Source: Mytilus galloprovincialis (lineage: Eukaryota; Mollusca; Bivalvia; Mytilida; Mytilidae). Taken from it: DNA of 64,000 bases. Numbering within the stretch: position 1 is the stretch's first letter; every line of letters begins with the position of its first letter. The stretch is taken from contig NC_134851.1 in NCBI RefSeq assembly GCF_965363235.1, positions 54,688,833 through 54,752,832 of the forward strand. Direction: 5' to 3'. The notes under the pieces were generated by a model. That model was not told where the DNA came from. It saw only the letters and a program-made list of their open reading frames with translations, and did not search any database. Shown piece by piece: positions 2,891 through 61,040 of this stretch. The position numbers were made by a program, and so were the translations under genes.

Positions 2891-3893
2891 CTATCTTGGT
2901 GAGACGCACTTGTCAAATAATTATATCTTTGACTGAATCGTACGATCCTTGACGATATATTTTCTTGCTTATCTACAATCAATTCCATCTTCATGAGTGT
3001 TTTCATTTTTGACTTTTGATATTTTGAAACATATTAGTGAGTTGGAAATATTAAATCATATTTAAGTAAATTCAAAACGAAAAATCGGTGAAATAATTAA
3101 TATAACGTCTTGAGTATTTTTTCGGTCTTCTCTAGTTTGTTTTCATATCAGTCAATACTTGAGCTAATTCAACGGTTCGCTGATTTTTACAGAAAATCTA
3201 TATTCAGCTGGTGTCTTTCTTCTATTCCCACTTTTAAAAAATACTATTCCTTCTATTCCCACTTGCAAATAACAGTAGATGTTTTAATAAATAATTTGTT
3301 TTTATAGCAATCAAGGTTAATAAGAATTTCACCTGTATTTTTTTTCAAAGCATAACATATTTGATATACTGTTTAGGTAAAATACCTTATTTATTTGTAA
3401 TATGTTGGGTTTTTTTTCACCAAAGAAATACTTGAAAATATAGCAAAATTATGATAAATAGATAAGAGTTATTTTTTTTTTCTTTCATTTTTTTTTTTAA
3501 TTTTTACCTTCAATATTTGTCTGCTGTACCAATAAATTAGATATAAATAATATTATAACCAAGTATAACTTAAGATGCAGAATAAAAGGATACTCTTAAA
3601 ATATAATTACTTGGACCAATAATCAAATATATGAAATAATAGGTGAAAACTGTTAACTTTACTTTAAAGCATGAGCAATCAGATTTGATGAATTTTAATT
3701 GACTGAGTTATCAAAGCTGAAAAAAATTCAATCAGAATCGATTTTGCAAGCTAAGAACTTAGCTGACAAATACTTACTCAGATGCTAACCCCCAAGCTCT
3801 GTGAGCTCCAATCTTAAAAATTGATATAAATTGTGGTCCTTGTCCAGTTCGCGTTTGACGTACTCGTCATTTGTCATTTTTTGGACAATCATC

Positions 3894-4547
3894 ATGGATA
3901 TCCCTGATGAACTGAATGCTTTGTTAGCGGCCATGAAGTTGACTGGTAAAGAACCTGCCTGGAAGTTCTCGGCAAGTACTGACCAGGTGACGGTACAGTT
4001 GACGTGGACCAAGGCTAAGGAACAAGAGGCACCCTCCTGTAAACCCAAGCCGGCCCTGAAGAGTAAGTCACCATCCACCAGGAGAAGGAACGCCAAGCGT
4101 TACGACCAGGTGATGGCAAACAAAACAGCCGTTGTACCTGCTGCCCCTATCCAACAAACCACCATCACGCAAACCGAGGCAAGAGACAGCGTAGATGGAC
4201 ATGTACTCACACCAACTAAGTACAAAGGGGAACCAGTTGGGGTTGTAGTCAATAGGGATATTGTCACCAGTCCCTACAATTCCAAAAAGGCCTGCCATCG
4301 CCTGGTATTCTACACCTCCACAAATGACAGAGACAAGCGCAGTAGGATCGACTTTGAAGAAGGATTTGTCATCGACGACCCAGACCTACTGCGCACACCA
4401 CCACACACATTGCCCGTCGTAAACGACGACTCCAAAGAGGCAATACAAACAGCCATACTAGCATCACGACCTGATACTCCGTACCAGCAACACCAACGCA
4501 GCGGCAGTAAAATGAAGGCTAAAAGACAAACAGACTCCGGTATTTAA
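3894..4547 (+). CDS. Accessory protein ORF of the MULE-type transposon
   Basis: A 217-codon ORF starts at the ATG at 3894 (MDIPDELNALLAAMK) and ends with TAA at 4545-4547. The open frame extends further 5' but has no ATG there. The product is hydrophilic. Residues 50-75 are lysine/arginine-rich (KPKPALKSKSPSTRRR), and the C-terminus is rich in Ser, Gln and Lys. There is no signal peptide or membrane segment. I recognise no domain. It sits 90 bp upstream of the transposase ORF on the same strand and inside the same terminal repeats, so it is best read as the element's first ORF, possibly a DNA-binding helper. It could also be a captured host gene. Confidence 0.6.
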   Translation: MDIPDELNALLAAMKLTGKEPAWKFSASTDQVTVQLTWTKAKEQEAPSCKPKPALKSKSPSTRRRNAKRYDQVMANKTAVVPAAPIQQTTITQTEARDSVDGHVLTPTKYKGEPVGVVVNRDIVTSPYNSKKACHRLVFYTSTNDRDKRSRIDFEEGFVIDDPDLLRTPPHTLPVVNDDSKEAIQTAILASRPDTPYQQHQRSGSKMKAKRQTDSGI

Positions 4548-4637
4548 AATAGGTAATTCCAGTCCGCAATATCCAGACAGGATAGCCGGACGTGACACAT
4601 TCACATATCATCATCGTCAAGTCATTACTCAGTGACA

Positions 4638-5945
4638 ATGGCTAATGCAGAAATACAAGTAAAGTTTGTTACAAACAGACTTGGGAACCAAAACCTTGCA
4701 CACAGTGGGTTTAAGTTCCAGGCAAAGAACAAAAGGGGCATAAGAACTTACTGGAAGTGTTCAACTGCAAACTGTCCTGCCACCATCAATACTTTGAACC
4801 ACATACCAACCAAAGTCTCAGCAAACCACAACCATGGGTCTGACCACATGCAGCTGAAAGTAGATGATGTCCTCCAGAGAATGAAAGTTCGCTGCACAAA
4901 TGAGCTGACACCAATTCCAACCATCTACGAGGAAGAACTAGTAAAACTCAGAAAAGATGATTGGAACGACGACACACAAGAACTTGTAGATAACATTCCA
5001 ACTTTTCCATCTTGCAAGAATACAATGTACAACAAACGCAAGAAGAACCTTCCAGTTTTACCAAAAACAGTTGATCAAATCTAAGTAGATGGCATTTGGA
5101 CACGTACAACCAAATGTAATCCATGCCTGCTAACAGACGATAACACAGTAGGGCGTATGATTATCTTCAGTACACAAAAGAATCTAACACACTTATCAGC
5201 TGCAGATATCATATATGGGGATGGTACATTTTACACCTGTCCAAGTTTATTCCTCCAACTGTACACTTTTCACGCATTGGTTGACGGAGCAATATACCCA
5301 CTTGTACACAGTTTACTTCATGCCAAGAGTGAACTAGTCTATACAAGGTTCCTGACTCTACTTAAAGATCTTTGCCACCAACGCCAACTACAACGTCAGC
5401 CGAAAACTATCTTCCTGGATTATGAAGTCGCCATCCGAAATGCAGCATACTCTGTATTTCCTGGCATCAACGCAAAAGGCTGTTTCTTCCACTATACACA
5501 CTGCATCTGGAGAAAAGCACAAGAAAGAGGTCTTCAGGTTCCATACAAAAACGACGACGACAATATTCACCAACTAGTACGTCGTGCTCCTATACTTCCA
5601 CTTATACCCTTTACTGAGGTTGAAGATGTTTGGTTTAATGCCCTAACAGGCATAGTCCAGATTGATACCAACACCAACTACACAGCATTTATAGACTATG
5701 TAACAACATACTGGGTTGAACAGAGCAGTCATCTTTGGAACCACTACCTAACACAAGGGCCAAGGACAACAAATCATATAGAGGGATGGCACAGCAAACT
5801 GAGGAAACGTGTCACCCATATACATGCACATCCAAACATCTTTGAACTGATTAAACTTCTGAAACATGAGGAAGCCTTCAACGCCATGACTATGATCCAG
5901 TATGTAGCGTGTGGGAAGAGACCAGCCCCAAAAAGAAGTATGTAG
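4638..5945 (+). pseudogene. MULE transposase with N-terminal FLYWCH-type zinc finger, one in-frame stop
   Basis: From the ATG at 4638 one frame runs to TAG at 5943-5945 (435 codons), broken only by TAA at 5082-5084 (codon 149). Residues 20-75 hold a FLYWCH/WRKY-GCM-type zinc motif: W-K-C, a second Cys six residues on, and N-H-N-H. The MULE transposase core follows the stop. YGDGTF (Asp near 195) supplies the first catalytic aspartate and FLDYEVAIRNA the second. The conserved CFFHYTHCIWRK box and a later N-H-I-E-G-W segment offer the expected downstream acidic residue. The domain order matches animal MULEs. The enzyme would bind the ends and move the element. The stop predicts an inactive or two-part product unless it is read through. 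No frameshift is visible, so inactivation looks recent. Confidence 0.8.
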
Positions 5946-7059
5946 AAATCAAAATCAGATTAGACGAACTTGAGATTAGACACCACAACCAAGAAGTTAC
6001 AACAGTATAGTTTGGTGATGCAGCCTCCCATCTTCTTCACGTAGAATAGATTGATAAACTTTAATAGACTTATATAAAATGATTGTCCAATGTTTATGTT
6101 ACACTGTGTGATTTGATTTAGTACTGTTGTATAATTTGTGTTATATTATGCTTGCTTGAATCCAAAGTTGAATTTGTGTTATAAAAGTAATAAAATAATC
6201 ATACTTATATTTGTTTTAATTTCTTTCTTTGTTTAAAAAAACCACAGAATTCACACAGATACAAAAATGACTTATTACCTGTCCTAATAAAAAAAAAACA
6301 CTGAGCCAATTGACAGTTGATTAAAAAAAATGTTTGTACAATATAATCCTTTGTTTGTACAAGTTTTTCTCCTATTCCCACATGAAATTTTGCATTTTCT
6401 TACCAGATTTATAAAAAGTGGGAATAGAGGGAATGAACAATTCAGCTGATTGTAAAAAAGTCTTTGTGCAATTGAAAACTTTTTGGCAACATACTAATCA
6501 ATCAAAGGTGTATATGATATATCTTGATAAAATCATTTTTACAAATTCTACAAAAGAAATTAATTTGAAGTGTTGACTTCGCCATCGATTATAATGAATA
6601 TAGATGAAAATAAAAACAAACCTGTAATTTGAAACAGACACAAACAATTTAAGTCAAAAATAAAAAGGAAGAAAACTTATTGAAGTCAAATTCCTTCCTG
6701 TCGATGTTTTGGGCACAAAATACAAATACCTTTGAACTCTGATATCCACATTAAAGGGACCATAAATAAAGTTTAATTTCTCAATATAAGTTGACAGTAT
6801 CCATGAATTTAAATAACAAATATTGTTCAAATTAAGGGTTTATTTCGAAAGGGGCAAATCTAAAAGTAAAACAAACCAACCATAAAAAACGAAACGTTAC
6901 ATCTAAAACTGAAAATCAAACAACACAAACCCAAACAAAACTACAGGATGATTTTTTTGTGCTCTGGAAGTGATAGCAGTTCCTACTCAACTTTTAACAC
7001 TGTACAGTTCCTCCAGTAAGTAGAAATAAGCTGCTATCTGTCATATCACAATTATGGAA
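5946..7059. other. 3' part of the MULE and AT-rich spacer
   Basis: A candidate AATAAA at about 6189 could end the transposon transcript. The terminal repeat lies at 6400-6470. From 6470 to 7059 I see only AT-rich DNA with no open frame or repeat that I can name. Confidence 0.4.
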
Positions 7060-12962: not shown

Positions 12963-13990
12963 CTGTAAGCAGACCATTCAAATGCCAATTAAAAAAATAC
13001 CAATTGCAGCATTTTAGACAGTCAAAGCATGGTTACTTTTTATAAGGTTAGGAAACTTAAATCGTTTTCTGTCAACGATTCAACACTCTTAATCAAAAAT
13101 AAAGAAAGAGGCACTAAATCAAAGCCCCATGGCCTTCTGTATTAAATTCTCCAATTTCATACATTTTATAGCTATCTTGTACTAAGTTTAAATAAATTGA
13201 CAGGCAATGTTCCTCATTCTGACTTGTGCTGAAAAATTTGACATGCCTTGCATTGCTGTTAAAGCGCATTGCTTCCCAGAAGTTTGGTAGTACAAGAACA
13301 TCAGGGAAGATGTACCCTCAAAATCAAATGTCATATATATATTTTTTTCATTATAAAAAGGAATCTTTTTTTGAATTACTCGATACAGTATGTTATACTC
13401 ATTGGAATCAAGAGTTGCTGACAATAATATATAAATGTGGAATATCTGTTTCACAGATTACGACCGATAAGTTCAAACTTTTCTGTGTCTATTGAATTTT
13501 CAAGTAATTTTGATTGTTGCATTTACCTGATATCACGTTATGTTTCCTAGCTGGCTTTTACAGTTAAAATCAATAGGTCTTCAGAACGTATAATGGCGGC
13601 TATGAGGAAATAATTAACTATTATTATAAACATGCTACCTTTGTTCTATACTTAAATTTAAGTTTAAAAATCATTCGGTAAAAAACCTCACAGTATTTGA
13701 AATATGAGCTGATATCCTTTCTTTTCTATCATAAAGGAAAACAAGGAACTAAATAATTTACTTATTGATATTGAGGGACAAGTCATATCTAATATGTGTA
13801 TTCTAAAATGCACAAGGATAATATTTACGCTAAAGACTCTTCAATAGTGCTATTCTGGGCAGCAATATTACATTTCTAACTTTAAACCAATTGTTCCAAA
13901 AATAAGATAAACTGCACTTACTATTAACGTCAAAATCATGTTATATTTGGTTTTCTGTTAATAAAAGGAGATACGGGTGTATGGAAATAT
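12963..13990. other. AT-rich non-coding DNA
   Basis: Short overlapping open frames on both strands at 13188-13495 show no recognisable protein and no splice context. Nothing else can be supported up to the palindromic element at 13991. Confidence 0.35.
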
Positions 13991-14035
13991 TACGGAGCCC
14001 TGTTGGTCTCACACAGATTATAAAGTGTCTTTTGA

Positions 14036-14371
14036 AGTCCTGCGCTAAAGATGTGTAAAGTCTAGCGCTGAAGATGTAAGTCTAGCGCTGGAGATGTAAA
14101 GTCCAGCGCTGAAGATGTAAAGGCAAGCGCTGGAGATGTAAAGTCAAGCGCTGGAGATGTAAAGACTAGCCCTAGAGATGTAAAGTCTAGCGCTGGAGAT
14201 GTAAAGTTCAGCGCTGAAGATGTAAAGTCAAGCGCTTGAGATGTAAAGTCTAGCGCTGAAGATGTAAAGTCAAGCGCTGGAGATGTAAAGTCAAGCGCTG
14301 GAGATGTAAAATCAAGCGCTGGAGATGTAAAGTCTGGCGCTGGATATGTAAAGTCAAGCGCTGGAGATGTG
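14036..14371 (+). repeat. 21-bp minisatellite, left arm (about 16 units)
   Basis: Unit AGCGCTGGAGATGTAAAGTC plus one base, with variants such as GCGCTGAAG and GCCCTAGAG. Because 21 is divisible by three, long spurious reading frames (D-F-T-S-P-A-L heptads) appear on the other strand. It is the inverted partner of 18541-19150. Confidence 0.9.
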
Positions 14372-14394
14372 ATGTTAACCAGCATGTATAGATA

Positions 14395-15030
14395 CCAGGC
14401 TCAAGCTAGCAGCCACTCGCTAGCAGCCACTTCGCTAGCAGCCAGTTTTCAGATATGTCTAAAAACCCAAAAGTTGCATAAGATTCAAACGTACTAAAAA
14501 TGTTTTTATTAAATATATAATCACAAAATAGTCTGTTTTAATATATGATTGAGAAGCCAAAGACACTATTCAATGTTTTTTTTTTAAATTTACATGTTAT
14601 TTCCTGTTCATTAATTCAGAGACAATCCGTATACCAAACAGCGTGCTGCACGCATTACATTTTTATCAGTGCTTGTAGAATCGTAAATAGCTATGAGATT
14701 ATTTAAATGAATGCAAAATTGTTGTTACATGGTATCGAGTTTTCCCTAAGAAATTGATTTGTGATATTGTAAGAAGTAGCTTTCCATAGTCTCGGCATCC
14801 TGTCAAGTAGTTCCTAAAATATATCAATAGTTCTGCATTACAAGAATAGAAAATTGCACTCGTGCTTTGCTATTTTTTTATCAGACAAATTTGTTTTGAC
14901 AAAAGATTCTACTTGTGAACAAGCGGATTTCGCTCACATTTGATTATACGAAAGGTTTATTTGTTGTACTTAATGTATGGTGTGCACGGAAAAATAAAAT
15001 TAGCAATTTATAAAAATACCTACCTTAAGA
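14395..15030 (+). repeat. Left arm of the palindrome (unique part)
   Basis: Includes three GCTAGCAGCCA words near 14405-14445. It continues through a stretch matching the reverse complement of 17130-17757, with shared words such as AGCACGAGTGCAATTTT and CACCATACATTAAGTAC. No coding capacity. Confidence 0.75.
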
Positions 15031-15408
15031 CCTATGGTGAAGTTGTCCCACCTGGGCCATTTGGCCCATTGGACCTTAGACCATTACTTATCATTTGCAC
15101 CTAGTGGGTAAAAAAGTATTGCCGTAGGGAATTTTTGACAGACTTTTGAAAATTTGGGGTAGGCATGTTAGACCCTTTAGACCGAAGTTCGGACCTATGG
15201 TGAAGACAAACTATGAGTTGTCCCACCTGGACCTTTTGGCCCATTGTACCCTAGCCCATTACCTACCATTTCCATCTAGTGGCTAAAAAAGTATTGCCGT
15301 AGGGAATTTTTTACACTCTTTTAAAAATGCGGGTAAGGCATTTTTTTCAAATCTAACTTTGGACCCATGGTGAGGACAAACCATGAATTGGGTCCGTGCA
15401 TATCTGCG
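15031..15408 (-). repeat. Two inverted units of the 174-bp satellite
   Basis: One A-type unit and one B-type unit in the orientation opposite to the main array at 15782-17130. Shared words (reverse complement) include GGTAGGCATGTTAGACCC, TTGCCGTAGGGAATTTTT and ACCTATGGTGAAGACAAAC. Confidence 0.8.
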
Positions 15409-15780
15409 TCCATTCGTTTTTCGTTTTGAAATATCAAAAACAAAAAACAAAAAACGAAAGTGTTTTCATTTTTCGTTTTTGATTTCATAAAAACCAAAAT
15501 GAAAAACGAAAGTGTTTTCATTTTTCGTTTTTGATTTCTTAAAAACCAAAACGAAAAACGAAAGTGTTTTCATTTTTCGTTTTTGATTTCTTAAAAATTA
15601 AAATGAAAAACAAAAGTGTTTTCGTTTTTCGTTTGATTTCACAAAACAAAAAACGAAAAACAAAAGTATTTTCATTTTTCAATTTTGATTTTTCAAAAAC
15701 TAAAATCGAAAAATGAAAGTGTTTTCATTTTTCATTTTTGATTTCACAAAATCAAAAAATGAAAAACGAAAGTGTATTTA
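15409..15780. repeat. 52-bp self-complementary tandem repeat at the palindrome centre
   Basis: The word AGTGTTTTC recurs at 15459, 15511 and 15563, so the period is 52 bp, with about seven decaying units. Each unit holds CATTTTTCGTTTTTGATTT followed by AAAACGAAAAACGAAA, so each can form its own hairpin. Confidence 0.85.
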
Positions 15781-15781
15781 T

Positions 15782-17130
15782 GCCTACCCCAAATTTTCAA
15801 AAGTCTGTCAAAAATTCCCTACGGCAATACTATTTTACCCACTAGATGCAAATGATAGGTAATGGTCTAAGGTCCAATGGGCCAAAAGGTCCAGGTGGGA
15901 CAACTCATAGTTTGTCTTCACCATAGGTCCGAACTTAGGTCTAAAGGGTCTAACATGCCTACCCCAAATTTTCAAAAGTCTGTCAAAAATTCCCTACGGC
16001 AATACTTTTTTACCCACTAGGTGCAAATGATAGGTAATGGTCTTAGGTCCGATGGGCCAAAAGGCTTAGGTTGGCAACTCATGGTTTGTCCTCACCATGG
16101 ATCCAAAGTTAGATTTGAAAAAAATGTCTTACCCCAATTTTTAAAAGAGTGTAAAAAATTCCCTACGGCAACACTTTTTTAGCCATTAGGTGGAAATGGT
16201 AGGTAATGGGCTATGTTCCAATGGGCCAAAAGGTCCAGGTGGGACAACTCATAGTTTGTCTTCACCATAGGTCCGAACTTAGGTCTAAAGGGTCTAACAT
16301 GCCTACCCCAAATTTTCAAAAGTCTGTCAAAATTCCCTACGGCAATACTTTTTACCCACTAGGTGCAAATGATAGGTAATGGTCTAAGGTCCAATGGGCC
16401 AAAAGGTCCAGGTGGGACAACTCATGGTTTGTCTTCACCATAGGTCCTAACTTAGGTCTAAAGGGTCTAACATGCCTACCCCAAATTTTCAAAAGTCTGT
16501 CAAAAATTCCCTACGGCAACACTTTTTTACCCACTAGGTGCAAATGATAGGTAATGGTCTTAGGTCCGATGGGCCAAAAGGCTTAGGTTGGCAACTCATG
16601 GTTTGTCCTCACCATGGATCCAAAGTTAGATTTGAAAAAAATGTCTTACCCCAATTTTTAAAAGAGTGTAAAAAATTCCCTACGGCAACACTTTTTTAGC
16701 CATTAGGTGGAAATGGTAGGTAATGGGCTATGTTCCAAATGGCCAAAAGGTCCAGGTGGGACAACTCATAGTTTGTCTTCACCATAGGTCCGAACTTAGG
16801 TCTAAAGGGTCTAACATGCCTACCCCAAATTTTCAAAAGTCTGTCAAAAATTCCCTACGGCAATACTTTTTACCCACTAGGTGCAAATGATAGGTAATGG
16901 TCTAAGGTCCAATGGGGCAAAAGGTCCAGGTGGGACAACTCATGGTTTGTCTTCACCATAGGTCCGAACTTAGGGCTAAAGGGTCTAACATGCCTACCCC
17001 AAATTTTCAAAAGTCTGTCAAAAATTCCCTACGACAATACTTTTTTACCCACTAGGTGCAAATATTAGAATGGTCTAAGGTCCAATGGGCCAAATGGCCC
17101 AGATGGGACAACTTCACCATAGGTCCAAAG
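15782..17130 (+). repeat. 174-bp satellite array with A-A-B higher-order structure
   Basis: Eight units start at about 15782, 15957, 16127, 16301, 16474, 16644, 16818 and 16992. Units 3 and 6 are a distinct B type (TCTTACCCCAATTTTTAAAA, CACCATGGATCCAAAG). The others are A type (GCCTACCCCAAATTTTC, CACCATAGGTCCGAAC). Corresponding units repeat every 517-518 bp, so the array grew as an A-A-B trimer. Confidence 0.9.
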
Positions 17131-17757
17131 GTAGGTTTCTTTTATAAATTGCTAATTTATATTTCCCGTGCACACCATACATTAAGTACAACAAATAAAC
17201 ATTTCGTATAATCAAATGTGAGCGAATTCCGCTTGTTCAGAAGTAGAATCTTTTGTCAAAACAAATTTGTCTTACAAAAAAATAGCAAAGCACGAGTGCA
17301 ATTTTCTATTCTTGTAATGCAAAACTAATGATACTTTTTAGGAACTACTTGAAAGGATGCCGAGTCTATGGAAAGCTATTTCTTACAATATACAAAATTA
17401 ATTTCTAATGGAAAAGTCGATACCATGGAACAACAATTTTGCCAGCATTTAAATAATTGCATAGCTATTTACTATTCCTTATACACTATTAAAAATTGCG
17501 CGCAGCACGCTGTTTGGTATATGGAAAGCGAATACTATTGTCTCTAAATTAATGAACAGGAAATTACATGTAAATTAAAAAAATATATTAAATAGTGTCT
17601 TCGGCTGCTCAATCATATATAAAAACAGATTATTTTGTGATTATTTAATCGATAAAAACATTTAAAGTACGTTTGAATCTTATGCAACTTTTGGGTTTAT
17701 AGACATATCTGAAAACCGGCTGCTAGCGAAGTGGCTGCTAGCGAGTGGCTGCTAGCT
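17130..17757 (-). repeat. Right arm of the palindrome (unique part)
   Basis: Reverse-complement partner of 14395-15030, with modest divergence and small indels. It ends in repeated GGCTGCTAGCGA words mirroring the left arm. Confidence 0.75.
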
Positions 17758-18540
17758 TGAGCTTGGTTGTACAGATTTGCAATCGGGTCATAACATTTTC
17801 AAGATGGCCGCCATTACCATCGAAACAGCAAAAATGTCAAAAAAATCAATATGCTCCAAAGTTAATGAAACTTAACACAAATATTGACTGGTATATGGAG
17901 ATGTCCCATTTGACTTTGGAATTTTCAAAATGGCCGCCGTTACCATGGAAACAGCTAAAATATCAAAAATTCTAACTCTTTCGTTATAAGACCCAAACTG
18001 GATTAAACTTTATGAAAATGTTACCCAGTATGATAAGATGTCAAGACAATATTTGGATAGTCCAAAATGGCCGCCGTTGTTATGGAAACTGGGCAAGTTT
18101 TACATTGACCCTATGGGAAAATGCATAAAATCAGCATTTTATTAAAGAGTATTTCACCAAAGCCAATGAAACAGTACTGATATATAACATCACATGTGGC
18201 AATGAGATGTCTGCTTTTAGAATTTTGGAATTATCTACTGTAACCATGGTTGCAGCAAAAATGTTCAAAATTTCAAAAAAAATTAAAGTCCTGCAAACTG
18301 GATGAAACTTTACAGGAATGGTAACTGACATGTGTAGAGTTGCATTTTGAAGTCGGAATTTCAAAATGGCCACCGTTACTATGGAAACAGCAAAAATGTC
18401 CAAAATTTTAGAATGCTCAAACTTTACAAAAATAATAATTTGTATGTGTAAATAAACTCTTTAACTTTGGAATTTTCAAATGGATGCCGCTCGCCTGGCA
18501 ATGGGGGAACGAGGGTGCCATCCTTTATTGCTAGCAATTA
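17758..18540 (+). repeat. Degenerate repeat with ATGGCCGCCGTTACCATGG core, present only in the right arm
   Basis: AAATGGCCGCCGTTACCATGG-like cores occur near 17804, 17929, 18065, 18230 (degenerate), 18364 and 18476, about 110-165 bp apart and joined by lines such as AACTTTGGAATTTTC. The left arm goes from its GCTAGC words to its 21-bp array in about 30 bp, so this block is an insertion or a lost segment on the other side. Confidence 0.75.
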
Positions 18541-19150
18541 CAAATCTTGACTTTACATCTTCAGCGCTAGACTTTACATCTCCAGCGCTTGACTTTACAT
18601 CTCCAGCGCTTGACTTTACATCTCCAGCGCTTGACTTTACATCTTCAGCGCTAGACTTTACATCTCCAGCGCTAGACTTTACATCTCCAGCGCTTGACTT
18701 TACATCTCCAGCGCTTCACTTTACATCTCCAGCGCTTGACTTTACATATCCAGCGCCAGACTTTACATCTTCAGCGCTTGATTTTACATCTCCAGCGCTT
18801 GACTTAAGATCTCCAGCGTTTGATTCTACATCTCCAGCGCTTGACTTTACATCTTCAGCGCCAGACTTTACATCTCCAGCGCTTGAATTTACATCTTCAG
18901 CGCTAGATTTTACATCTCCAGCGCTTGATTTTACATCTCGAGCGCTAGACTTTACATCTCCAGCGCTAGACTTTGCATATCTCCAGCGCTTGATTTTACA
19001 TGTCCAGCGCTTGACTTTACATCTCCAGCGCTAGACTTTGCATATTTCCAGCGCTAGATTTTACACATCTCCAGCGCTAGACTTTACATCTCCAGCGCTG
19101 GACTTTACCTCTCCAGCGCTAGACTTTACACATCTTCAGCGCAGGACTTT
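18541..19150 (-). repeat. 21-bp minisatellite, right arm (about 28 units)
   Basis: Unit GACTTTACATCTCCAGCGCT plus one base, the reverse complement of the left array. A few units near 18970, 19030 and 19060 carry 3-bp insertions that break the reading frame, again showing that the frame is not under coding selection. Confidence 0.9.
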
Positions 19151-19199
19151 AAAAGACACTTTATAATCTGTGTGAGACCAACAGGGCTTCGTAAAATAT

Positions 19200-45100: not shown

Positions 45101-48100
45101 AGTCATGCTTAAATAACCTGTGTATCAATATTTTAGTTGAATTTATGTCCCTGATTTATTTTCTAAGGACATCATATGGTTATAACCTACATGTCCTTAA
45201 AATAATGAAACTTTCCAATTTTAAAGAAGAAAATTTGTCTTTTTTCATTTTAAATAATTGTTATGATAATAAAAACTAATCATGCCTATAGAAAAACAAG
45301 TCTTTGAACAACTTTTCCTAGGAAAATAAGTGCCACACATATTTTTAACAGATTATCGGCATTCCGATGGAAACGCATTGTGCACCTCTTCTTGCCGACT
45401 TGTTTCTTTATTATCATGAGGCTGAATTCATATAGAAACTTTTAAGGAAGAAAGATAAGAAGTTAGCAATATTTTTTAACTCTACTTGTTTCTTTATTAT
45501 TATGAGGCTGACTTCATATAGAAACTTTTAAGGAAGAAAGATAAGAAGTTAGCAATATCCTTTAACTCTACTTTTTACTATATAGATGATGTTCTTTCAC
45601 TAAATAATTCAAAATTTGGTGACTATGTCGAACGTATCTATCCCATTGAACTAGAGATAAAGGATACACCAGATACAGTTAAGTCGGCCTCATATCTTCA
45701 CTTACGTCTAGAAAATGACAAGGAGGGTCGATTGAAAATAAAACTTTACGACAAAAGAGATGATTTCAGCTTTCCAATTGTGAACTTTCCATTTTTAAGT
45801 AGCAACATTTCAGCCGCACCTGCATACGGTGTATATATCTCTCAATTGATACGATATTCCCGTGCTTGCATTTCCTATCATGATTTTCTTGATAGAAGGT
45901 TGTTTCTTACAAGGAAGCTATTGAATGAAGAGTTCCAAATGGTTAAGTTGAAATCATCTCTTCGTAAATTTTACGGACGCCATCACGAGTTGGTTGACCG
46001 TTATGGAATAACCGTTTCCCAAATGATATCGGATATGTTTCTTACGTCGTAACCACAATCCCCTTCCCTTTCATGAATGTGACCTACTGAATAAGACTAT
46101 TTACCGGATTTGTTATCTCATAAACAACACGACGGTTGCCACTTTTGGAGCAGGATCTGATAACCCTTCCGGAGCACCTGAGATCACCTCTAGTTTTTTG
46201 GTAGGGTTCCTATTGTTTTTTCTTTAGTTTTCTTTGTTGTGTCATGTGTACTATTATTTTTTTGGCCATGGCGTTGTCAGTTTTTTTTTCGATTTATGAG
46301 TTTGATTGTCCCTCTGGTATCTTTCGTCCCTCTTTTGTGGCATGTTTACTATTGTTTGTTTGTTTGTCCTTTTCATTTTTAGCCATGGCGTTGTCAGTTT
46401 ATTTTCGATTTATGAGTTTGACTGTCACTCTTGTATCTTTCGTCCGTATTGCCTTAGCTATGGATTTTTGTCCTAGAACTGATATTCCTAGTAAAATCAT
46501 GGACATGGACTTGATTAACTAGGGTGAAAGTCTGATAGACAATGTTTACTATTGGACTGGCCAATACAGCTGATCTGGAATCTTTTCTTAAATGACTTTT
46601 ATTCTTCATTTGAACTGAGCAACTTACCAAAATGTACCATGAAGTTGAATAAGATATAGAAATTTATATCTTTTTATCTAAACTCGTCATTTAGCATTCA
46701 CGATGGATTTTTTGTAACATTGTCAGCCTTCTGATTTCTCGTCTAGTTACTTGATAATATGCTATAATAAATAATTCTATCTAGCAAATCTAAATTACTT
46801 AGGAATCAGACAGATTAACTGTTCTTGCTCTAGAATCATCTGCGTTCCAATGATTGATCAACGGAAATGAAGCAGTAAAAATAATCGGAAGTCGTACTCG
46901 AATAGGCTGAGAAATATTTCCGTTTCAAAACGTTCAAAATTAGTGAACATCATTTAAACTATTTTATGATATGAAGGTTATACATATGAAAACAAATGTA
47001 ATTTATGCATAACGATACTTCCAAAGCTAACTGTAATCTTATCTTAGGCGTTAGGAAATTGAAACCGGAAGTGAACGTTCCGTATTAGCTCATGGGTCAA
47101 TACAGGGAGCAATACGTCATTTTCCATATTGACCCCGTAATTTATCCGTGTGGCATAACGTTTGCCTTTTCACCATCGTATGTGACGTCATTTTTTTTAA
47201 TTGCGTTGACGCCTGGATTAGTTCGGGTGTGTCTATGCTGCATCATGTATTCGGGTTTAGTTTTCTGTAATAAGTTAATACTTCAGTTTCATTATGAATA
47301 TATCTTTCACATTCATTTGTTAAAATTTACTGTTTGCAATAGCATGAATCGTTCTATATAAAAGTGTTCTTATCCCGGGCATAAAAACAATGCCGTATTT
47401 GGCAAAACCTTTTCAACTTTTGATCTTCAGTGCTGTACAACTTTGTACTTTTTTTCAATTTCGATCTTTTATATCTGGGCATTATGTATTCGGGTTTAGT
47501 TTTCTGTAATTAGTTAATACTTCAGTTTCATTATCATGATTATGTATATCTCTTTCATATTCATTTGATAAAATTTACTGTTTGCAATAGCATGAATTGT
47601 TCTATATAATAAGAATGTTCTTATCCCGGGCATACAAACAATGCCGTATTTGGCAAAACCTTTTCAACTTTTGATCTTCAGTGCTGTACAACTTTGTACT
47701 TTTTTCACTTTCGATCTTTTATATCTGGGCGTCACTATTGAGTCTTGTGTGGACAAGACGCGTTTTTTGGCGTATTGAATTTTAAACTTGATGCTTTTGT
47801 TGTCTATTAATCATGCTTTTCTTTGTCTATTATGGTCTCCTTTTTGTTTGTATTGTAGTCCTGTAATATTATGTTGTCATTTCAATGTTATATTTAACTT
47901 TGCCATTAAAGTGCGAGGTTTGGCATGCCATAAAACCAGGTTCAACCCACCACTTTTATTCCCCTTTAAAAGTGTCCTGTACCAAGTCAGGAAGATGGCC
48001 ATTGTTATAATATTGTTCGTTTCTGTGTGTGTTGCATTTTAACGTTGAGTCGTTTGTGTTTTCTCTTATTTTTTAGATAAGACGTGGCACGGTACTTATC

Positions 48101-60639: not shown

Positions 60640-61040
60640 AAAAATTGATACTCTCTGTGAGCATTCATTACGTCATGTGCAAATGCCTTTTACATTATGT
60701 GCAAACAACTAATACGTTTTGTGTAAACCTCGTTTACCTTATGTGCAAACATCGTTCACCATATGTGGTGCAAACATCGTTTACCTTATGTGCAAACACC
60801 TATTACGTTATGTGCAAATACCTATTAAGTTATGTATAAAAACTACATCATTATGTGCAAACACTATTACGTTATGTGCAAATACCGCTTACATTATGTG
60901 CGAACACCATGTAAGTTATGTGCAAATGCCTATTACAGTATGTCCAAACATCTATTACGTTATGTGTAAACACCTATTACGTTATGTCCAAACACCTATT
61001 ACGTTATGTCCAAACACCTATTACGTTCTGGTAAACGCGT
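60640..61040 (+). repeat. 22-bp minisatellite (about 17 units)
   Basis: Unit TTATGTGCAAACACCTATTA plus CG, with TGTCC variants in the last units. The 3' units are the most uniform. Open frames across it are by-products of the repeat. Confidence 0.9.

What the first reader, a model, noticed from the sequence alone, without database searches (positions are those of the whole stretch)
13991..19193. A 5.2-kb palindromic element built from inverted satellite arrays
Matching ends, a 21-bp minisatellite in each arm, 640 bp of matched unique arm, satellite units in both orientations and a hairpin-forming 52-bp repeat at the pivot are arranged as one mirror-image structure with a possible AAATAT duplication at its edges. 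I know of no element class with all these parts. It could extrude as a giant cruciform or foldback.
Basis: partly seen in the sequence, partly recalled or inferred. Interest (0 to 1): 0.85.

Follow-up and report, generated by a model that had tools for sequence, protein, structure and literature searches.

The report
Nested foldback transposons in animal genome
The 5.2-kb mirror-image structure is a jumping gene with repeat-filled arms (a foldback member of the IS3EU superfamily) that has a second, unrelated foldback element inserted inside it; the design is a known one, but I found no description of it in this superfamily.

Summary
It is mobile DNA, but not one element of an unknown class. 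OUTER (13991-19193): a non-autonomous foldback. Its 23-bp end core occurs 112 times in the 1.38-Gb genome (reversed control 0); 12 of 17 pairs examined have exact 6-bp target duplications (0 of 272 cross pairs). Copies with the same end and 21-bp array carry an integrase-type transposase (Pfam rva_4). TACGG-type ends plus 6-bp duplications match the published IS3EU signature. INNER (14394-17767; the 640-bp arms, inverted 174-bp arrays, 52-bp pivot): a second foldback family, elsewhere mostly 13.5-32 kb long, with exact 9-bp duplications in 4 of 4 copies read (8 of 9 bases in the window). A 769-bp fragment of a high-copy repeat fills the rest. Four sister IS3EU families carry arrays of about 21-bp period with different, often palindromic, units; I read these as transposase-binding platforms. 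That is inferred: the dyad is significant in 3 of 5 families, and unrelated minisatellites in my sample also cluster at 21-23 bp. Foldbacks are known; an IS3EU foldback was not found in the papers searched.

The parts
13985..13990 (+). left 6-bp target duplication AAATAT of the outer element
   Evidence: identical to 19194-19199; family rule 12 of 17 exact
13991..14042 (+). outer element, left terminal inverted repeat (TACGGAGCCCTGTTGG...)
   Evidence: 50 of 52 match to the right end; 112 genome matches of its core
14054..14370 (+). outer element, left 21-bp array, 15.1 copies
   Evidence: same array in all family A loci fetched
14385..14393 (+). left 9-bp target duplication TGTATAGAT of the inner element
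   Evidence: 8 of 9 against 17768-17776; exact in 4 of 4 other copies read
14394..15017 (+). inner element, left long inverted repeat (starts ACCAGGCTCAAG)
   Evidence: 559 of 618 match to the right arm; inverted pairs elsewhere
15041..15390 (-). inner element, left 174-bp satellite units, about two
15413..15775 (.). inner element, 52-bp quasi-palindromic array at the pivot, 7 copies
15780..17113 (+). inner element, right 174-bp satellite array, 7.7 copies
17138..17767 (-). inner element, right long inverted repeat (ends GAGCTTGGT)
17768..17776 (+). right 9-bp target duplication TGTACAGAT of the inner element
17777..18545 (+). fragment of a high-copy dispersed repeat, middle of the outer element
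   Evidence: 3081 first-look candidates, 40 scored
18546..19151 (-). outer element, right 21-bp array, 28.5 copies
19142..19193 (-). outer element, right terminal inverted repeat (reads TACGAAGCCCTG inwards)
19194..19199 (+). right 6-bp target duplication AAATAT of the outer element

Best explanation
Two foldback DNA transposons of different kinds, one inside the other. The outer one (13991-19193, about 1.8 kb before it was invaded) is a non-autonomous foldback of the IS3EU/GingerRoot superfamily: a roughly 50-bp inverted end and a 21-bp tandem array in each arm, around a middle made of a dispersed-repeat fragment. Most likely it is moved in trans by the integrase-type transposase of relatives that have the same end and array plus the gene, and that makes 6-bp duplications next to TACGG. 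The 21-bp arrays most likely serve as repeated binding sites for that transposase, as described for Galileo. A second foldback (14394-17767, 9-bp duplication) inserted into it later; it is a short relative of elements of mostly 13.5-32 kb with inverted 174-bp satellite arrays. Shown: ends, copies, both duplications, nesting, and the association of end plus array with the transposase gene. Inferred: trans-mobilisation, the function of the arrays, the class of the inner element (MULE/Rehavkus-like by duplication length only).
For: 112 end matches, control 0. 6-bp duplications exact in 12 of 17 family A pairs, 0 of 272 cross pairs, and in 9 of 10 family B pairs. End + 21-bp array + rva_4 transposase in L051 and L050; D134, D193 and E229 invariant in four families. 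IS3EU described with 6-bp duplications and TAYGG..CCRTA ends (PMC12730594 passages) and TA..TA ends (PMC10045372 passages). Inner family: 9-bp duplications exact in 4 of 4, inverted pairs and arrays elsewhere. Galileo repeats contain transposase sites (PMC4079207 passage).
Against: No intact autonomous family A copy with both ends was shown: no right end lies within the 5.7 kb read at the C6 copy, and the C13 copy has mismatched flanks (2 of 6) and two inverted gene pieces; two of the three close genes have in-frame stops. 5 of 17 family A pairs lack an exact duplication. The window's right end reads TACGA, not TACGG. No reference IS3EU protein was compared. Array function untested; unit dyad not significant in family A (P 0.13) or D (0.14). 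Inner duplication in the window is 8 of 9, and no transposase was found for the inner family.
Confidence: 0.85

Rival explanations
1. One single palindromic element of a new class, in which the inner arms and the 174-bp arrays belong to the same mobile unit as the 21-bp arrays.
For: All parts are roughly symmetric about one pivot.
Against: The inner arms occur elsewhere as ends of their own element with 9-bp duplications. No family A locus among L002-L058 holds inner-arm, 174-bp or 52-bp matches. A 9-bp near-duplication borders the inner part in the window.
Confidence: 0.03
2. The 21-bp arrays are passive slippage minisatellites with no role in transposition; their period is a general habit of this genome.
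For: Of seven background arrays (5 or more copies, period 10-100) outside the IS3EU arrays in the fetched DNA, five have periods of 21-23 bp; two of the seven share one unit sequence. Dyads not significant in families A and D.
Against: Arrays sit next to the ends in all five families with a located end at 48% or more identity, inverted at both ends in A and B. Palindrome shared by B and G although the spacers differ; dyads significant in B, C and G.
Confidence: 0.4
3. The arrays encode a repeat protein or an N-terminal extension of the transposase.
For: 21 is a multiple of three; long open frames cross the arrays, and in family B the frame runs on into the transposase.
Against: Spacings of 22, 23, 30 and 32 bp in A (right arm), B, C and D break the frame; in L051 the array frame stops before the transposase.
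Confidence: 0.03
4. The palindrome is an assembly or read artefact.
For: Inverted repeats are prone to such errors (general knowledge); no reads could be checked.
Against: 90% arm identity, unequal arrays, one-sided block, and two independent duplications.
Confidence: 0.02

Closest known systems
IS3EU / GingerRoot superfamily (PMC12730594, PMC10045372; passages)
   Same: 6-bp duplications, TACGG..CCGTA-type ends, integrase-type DDE transposase
   Different: long 21-bp arrays in each arm and foldback derivatives; no such arrays are mentioned in the passages read
Foldback elements: Tetris, FB, Galileo, sea urchin foldback (PMC4079207, passages)
   Same: long inverted arms with a flanking end, tandem-repeat outer domain and variable middle; non-autonomous; repeats of Galileo hold transposase sites
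   Different: other superfamilies (Mutator, P) and other duplication lengths (Tetris 8-10 bp); here 6 bp
Rehavkus / MULE (PMC6446971, passages), for the inner element only
   Same: 9-bp duplication, long inverted repeats, tandem repeats near the ends
   Different: arrays at both ends, arms above 600 bp, copies mostly 13.5-32 kb; transposase unknown
Dada (PMC3706591, passages)
   Same: 6-7 bp duplications
   Different: Dada-U6 and Dada-U1 lack terminal inverted repeats and Dada sits in small RNA genes; here inverted ends and varied targets

Membership tests
IS3EU (outer element) | 6-bp target duplication | tested here: met
   window exact; 12 of 17 family A pairs, 9 of 10 family B pairs
IS3EU (outer element) | ends TAYGG..CCRTA, inverted repeat over 30 bp | tested here: met
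   left TACGG, right TACGA in the window, TACGG in most copies; 50 of 52 bp
IS3EU (outer element) | integrase-type DDE transposase in autonomous relatives | tested here: met
   rva_4 PF24764, E 1.2e-26; D, D, E invariant in four families
IS3EU (outer element) | transposase groups with reference IS3EU/GingerRoot proteins in a tree | not testable with these tools
   no reference sequences held
Foldback elements (structural class) | long inverted arms with internal tandem repeats and a variable middle | tested here: met
MULE / Rehavkus (inner element) | 8-11 bp (Rehavkus 9 bp) target duplication | tested here: met
   9 bp exact in 4 of 4; window 8 of 9
MULE / Rehavkus (inner element) | MULE transposase or PHD-type transposase inside full-length copies | tested here: inconclusive
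   none of 140 listed MULE-domain hits (150 of 324 candidates scored) lies in 14 inner-family intervals; PHD not searched; interiors not read
Dada | insertion in small RNA genes, no terminal inverted repeats (U6 and U1 types) | tested here: not met
   inverted ends present; duplication sequences differ from copy to copy; no Rfam match in the window

The most novel reading that the evidence does not exclude
A clade of IS3EU transposons in this animal carries, next to the ends, arrays of dyad-symmetric units with a period of about two helical turns. The unit sequence is replaced between families while spacing and dyad are kept, because the arrays are helically phased landing platforms that co-evolve with the DNA-binding part of the transposase; foldback elements and part of the genome's minisatellites are by-products of that turnover.
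Probability: 0.3. Interest if true: 0.72.

Novelty: new variant of a known kind. Interest (0 to 1): 0.5.

Why it matters
How foldback elements get their tandem-repeat arms is an old question, and the passages read place foldbacks mainly in the Mutator and P superfamilies. An IS3EU case with gene-bearing relatives and several sister families with different arrays gives a comparative set in which the binding-platform idea can be tested directly. The nesting shows how satellite-like DNA of different origin can be stacked into one apparent palindrome, a trap for annotation.

Tried and rejected
Scans of IMG/VR for the end, the 21-bp unit, the 174-bp unit and the motif of the 769-bp block gave 0 matches each. 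Rfam gave nothing. The MULE transposase at 3.8-5.9 kb of the window was considered as partner of the outer element; the end core occurs only at the element itself and the inverted repeats listed near the MULE do not resemble it by eye, so it was dropped. A first duplication script was mis-anchored and gave 0 of 17; it was redone with a fixed anchor. The transposase model was poor (mean pLDDT 52.7; residues 1-110 better and helical); the fold comparison listed mainly S15-type ribosomal three-helix bundles and one phage small terminase for residues 1-52: inconclusive. The Protein Data Bank by sequence gave nothing up to E 0.1. The helical-phasing idea was weakened by my own control. Array-level dyad counts are not independent tests, since tandem copies repeat one unit. 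Five further upstream pieces (L098-L102) showed no array and no end that I could trust, and tell nothing.

Paper searches. One search lists 36 held papers with the word IS3EU; I saw passages of four of them and only the listing of the other 32. Repbase and most subscription papers were not searched. Sea urchin and FB details beyond the passages are not used.

Full report
OBSERVATION. The structure is there at the stated coordinates. The inverted ends start at 13991 (TACGGAGCCC) and 19193 (TACGAAGCCC read inwards), match at 50 of 52 bases, and are flanked by AAATAT on both sides. The 21-bp, 174-bp and 52-bp arrays are as described. The inner arms match at 559 of 618 aligned bases. The end core occurs only at these two places in the window.

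THE OUTER ELEMENT. The genome of the window is held (G000, 1.385 Gb, 331 contigs). The 23-bp end core has 112 matches with up to two mismatches, 56 on each strand, and none for the reversed control; only the first places are listed. I had letters for 17 pairs with both ends; several other listed pairs were not examined. Of the 17, 12 have exact 6-bp direct repeats, two match at 5 of 6, and three are worse (4, 2 and 1 of 6); 0 of 272 mismatched pairings are exact. So AAATAT is a target duplication. In each of L002-L058 the end is followed by the 21-bp array; matches to the inner arm, the 174-bp or the 52-bp repeat were found in L001 alone, which is the window's own locus, and the 769-bp block was found in none of L001-L058 (L001 does not reach it) at E 1e-6.

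ITS TRANSPOSASE. L051 (C6) and L050 (C13) hold the same end, the same 21-bp array (52 and 43 copies), then an open frame that matches Pfam rva_4, an integrase core (E 1.2e-26 and 4.2e-25). The genome has 139 matches (136 of 260 candidates scored), of which three are close (90-100%); two of those three have in-frame stops. No family A copy with an intact gene and both ends plus a matching duplication was shown. Aligned with three other families, D134, D193 and E229 are invariant. IS3EU elements are described with 6-bp duplications, inverted repeats over 30 bp and TAYGG..CCRTA ends (PMC12730594, passages), and as always having TA..TA ends (PMC10045372, passages). On these features the outer element files under IS3EU; a tree against reference proteins was not possible.

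SISTER FAMILIES. Family B (transposase 55% identical) ends TACGGAGCCCCGCTAGGGACATGC and has a 21-bp array with the palindrome TTGTGCGCACAA; three large copies of about 14-17 kb have inverted arrays at both ends, and 9 of 10 pairs examined (3 large, 7 small) have exact 6-bp duplications. Family C (50%) ends TACGGAAGCCGATAAGG, with units ATGTCGTAATAACGACATAAT. Family D (48%) ends TACGGAAGCCGTAAGGGG, with units spaced 21, 23, 30 and 32 bp under a relaxed core. Family G (54%) ends TACGGAAGCCCTGGAG, with units at 21 bp that include CTTGTGCGCACAAG. Duplications of C, D and G were not examined. Two more distant loci (36-38%), with presumed ends found by a pattern with one mismatch, have no array. So arrays occur in 5 of 5 families at 48% or more whose end I located and 0 of 2 below; loci without a located end are left out.

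HOW IT PROBABLY WORKS. The simplest account is cut-and-paste in trans by a family A transposase, with the arrays as repeated binding sites. Galileo's internal repeats contain transposase sites (PMC4079207 passage citing Marzo et al.). For it: the position of the arrays; dyads in families B, C and G (P 0.0018, 0.0014 and 0.001 against shuffled consensus units); and the palindrome shared by B and G although the spacers differ. Against it: no significant dyad in A (0.13) or D (0.14), and the period is shared by unrelated minisatellites: of seven background arrays with five or more copies in the fetched DNA and the window, five have periods of 21-23 bp, two of the seven sharing one unit sequence. 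I hold array binding at about 0.55, helical phasing lower.

THE INNER ELEMENT. The 'unique arm' (14430-15015) has 503 first-look candidates, of which 40 were scored, at 86-100%. I paired 14 neighbouring + and - hits: 12 span 13.5-32.4 kb, one 54 kb (perhaps not one element) and one 1.75 kb. Where arrays are listed, 174-bp units follow the arms in opposite orientation at the two ends (for example C1:21.34-21.36 Mb). Ends read for four large copies show exact 9-bp duplications in 4 of 4. In the window the boundaries fall at 14394 and 17767 with TGTATAGAT/TGTACAGAT. In two copies the left arm is nearer to the window's left arm than their right arm is (96 against 88%, 92 against 87%), in others the arms do not differ in this way; so the arm difference may be partly inherited and cannot date the insertion. 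A 9-bp duplication and long arms suggest MULE or Rehavkus (PMC6446971, passages), but none of 140 listed MULE-domain hits lies in the 14 intervals, and the interiors were not read.

THE THIRD PART. 17777-18545 is a fragment of a repeat with 3081 first-look candidates, 40 scored; apart from the window itself the long matches are at about 78-90%. Taking away the inner element and one 9-bp duplication leaves an outer element of 1820 bp, within the 1.1-5.6 kb of the siblings read, the rearranged 9.3-kb L050 left out.

VERDICT. Real, mobile and nested. Foldback transposons are a known class; the placement of this one in IS3EU and the sister-array pattern were not found in the papers that I could search.

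Noticed in passing
G000, rows at 35-41% identity, e.g. C3:9676396+/9689986-, C1:105984092+/105997506-, C11:27453376+/27466837-, C10:3152803+/3166224-: Many distant rva_4 transposase genes come in convergent pairs about 13-14 kb apart, as if large palindromic elements held a gene in each arm.
   Followed up: partly
L044 (C9:85126092-85130915): A family A copy with TSD CGTTTC also has an internal third end that carries the same 27-base flank as the right end, in inverted orientation: a sign of foldback-type rearrangement.
   Followed up: partly
L010, L011, L021, L026, L033: Five family A ends share one flank (CTAGAGGCTCTAAAG), so this copy seems nested in a larger repeat that was then copied.
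   Followed up: no
window 3825-5945: A MULE transposase with FLYWCH and MULE domains in adjacent frames; similar inverted repeats near 3246-3264 and 6416-6434 may be its ends.
   Followed up: partly
window 60667-61027; L015 2838-3009; L028 2138-2264; L104 565-689: Other minisatellites of 22-23 bp period outside the IS3EU arrays; a period near 21-23 bp may be common in this genome.
   Followed up: partly
window 45522-46052 and L051 4612-5163: Similar open frames ([23 protein letters not shown]) at two loci, no Pfam match for the window one; probably part of another mobile element.
   Followed up: no
PMC8268682, table passage: The oyster satellitome lists a 21-bp satellite (CgiSat43) and two satellites annotated as IS3EU; the 21-bp one could be checked for TACGG ends.
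   Followed up: no
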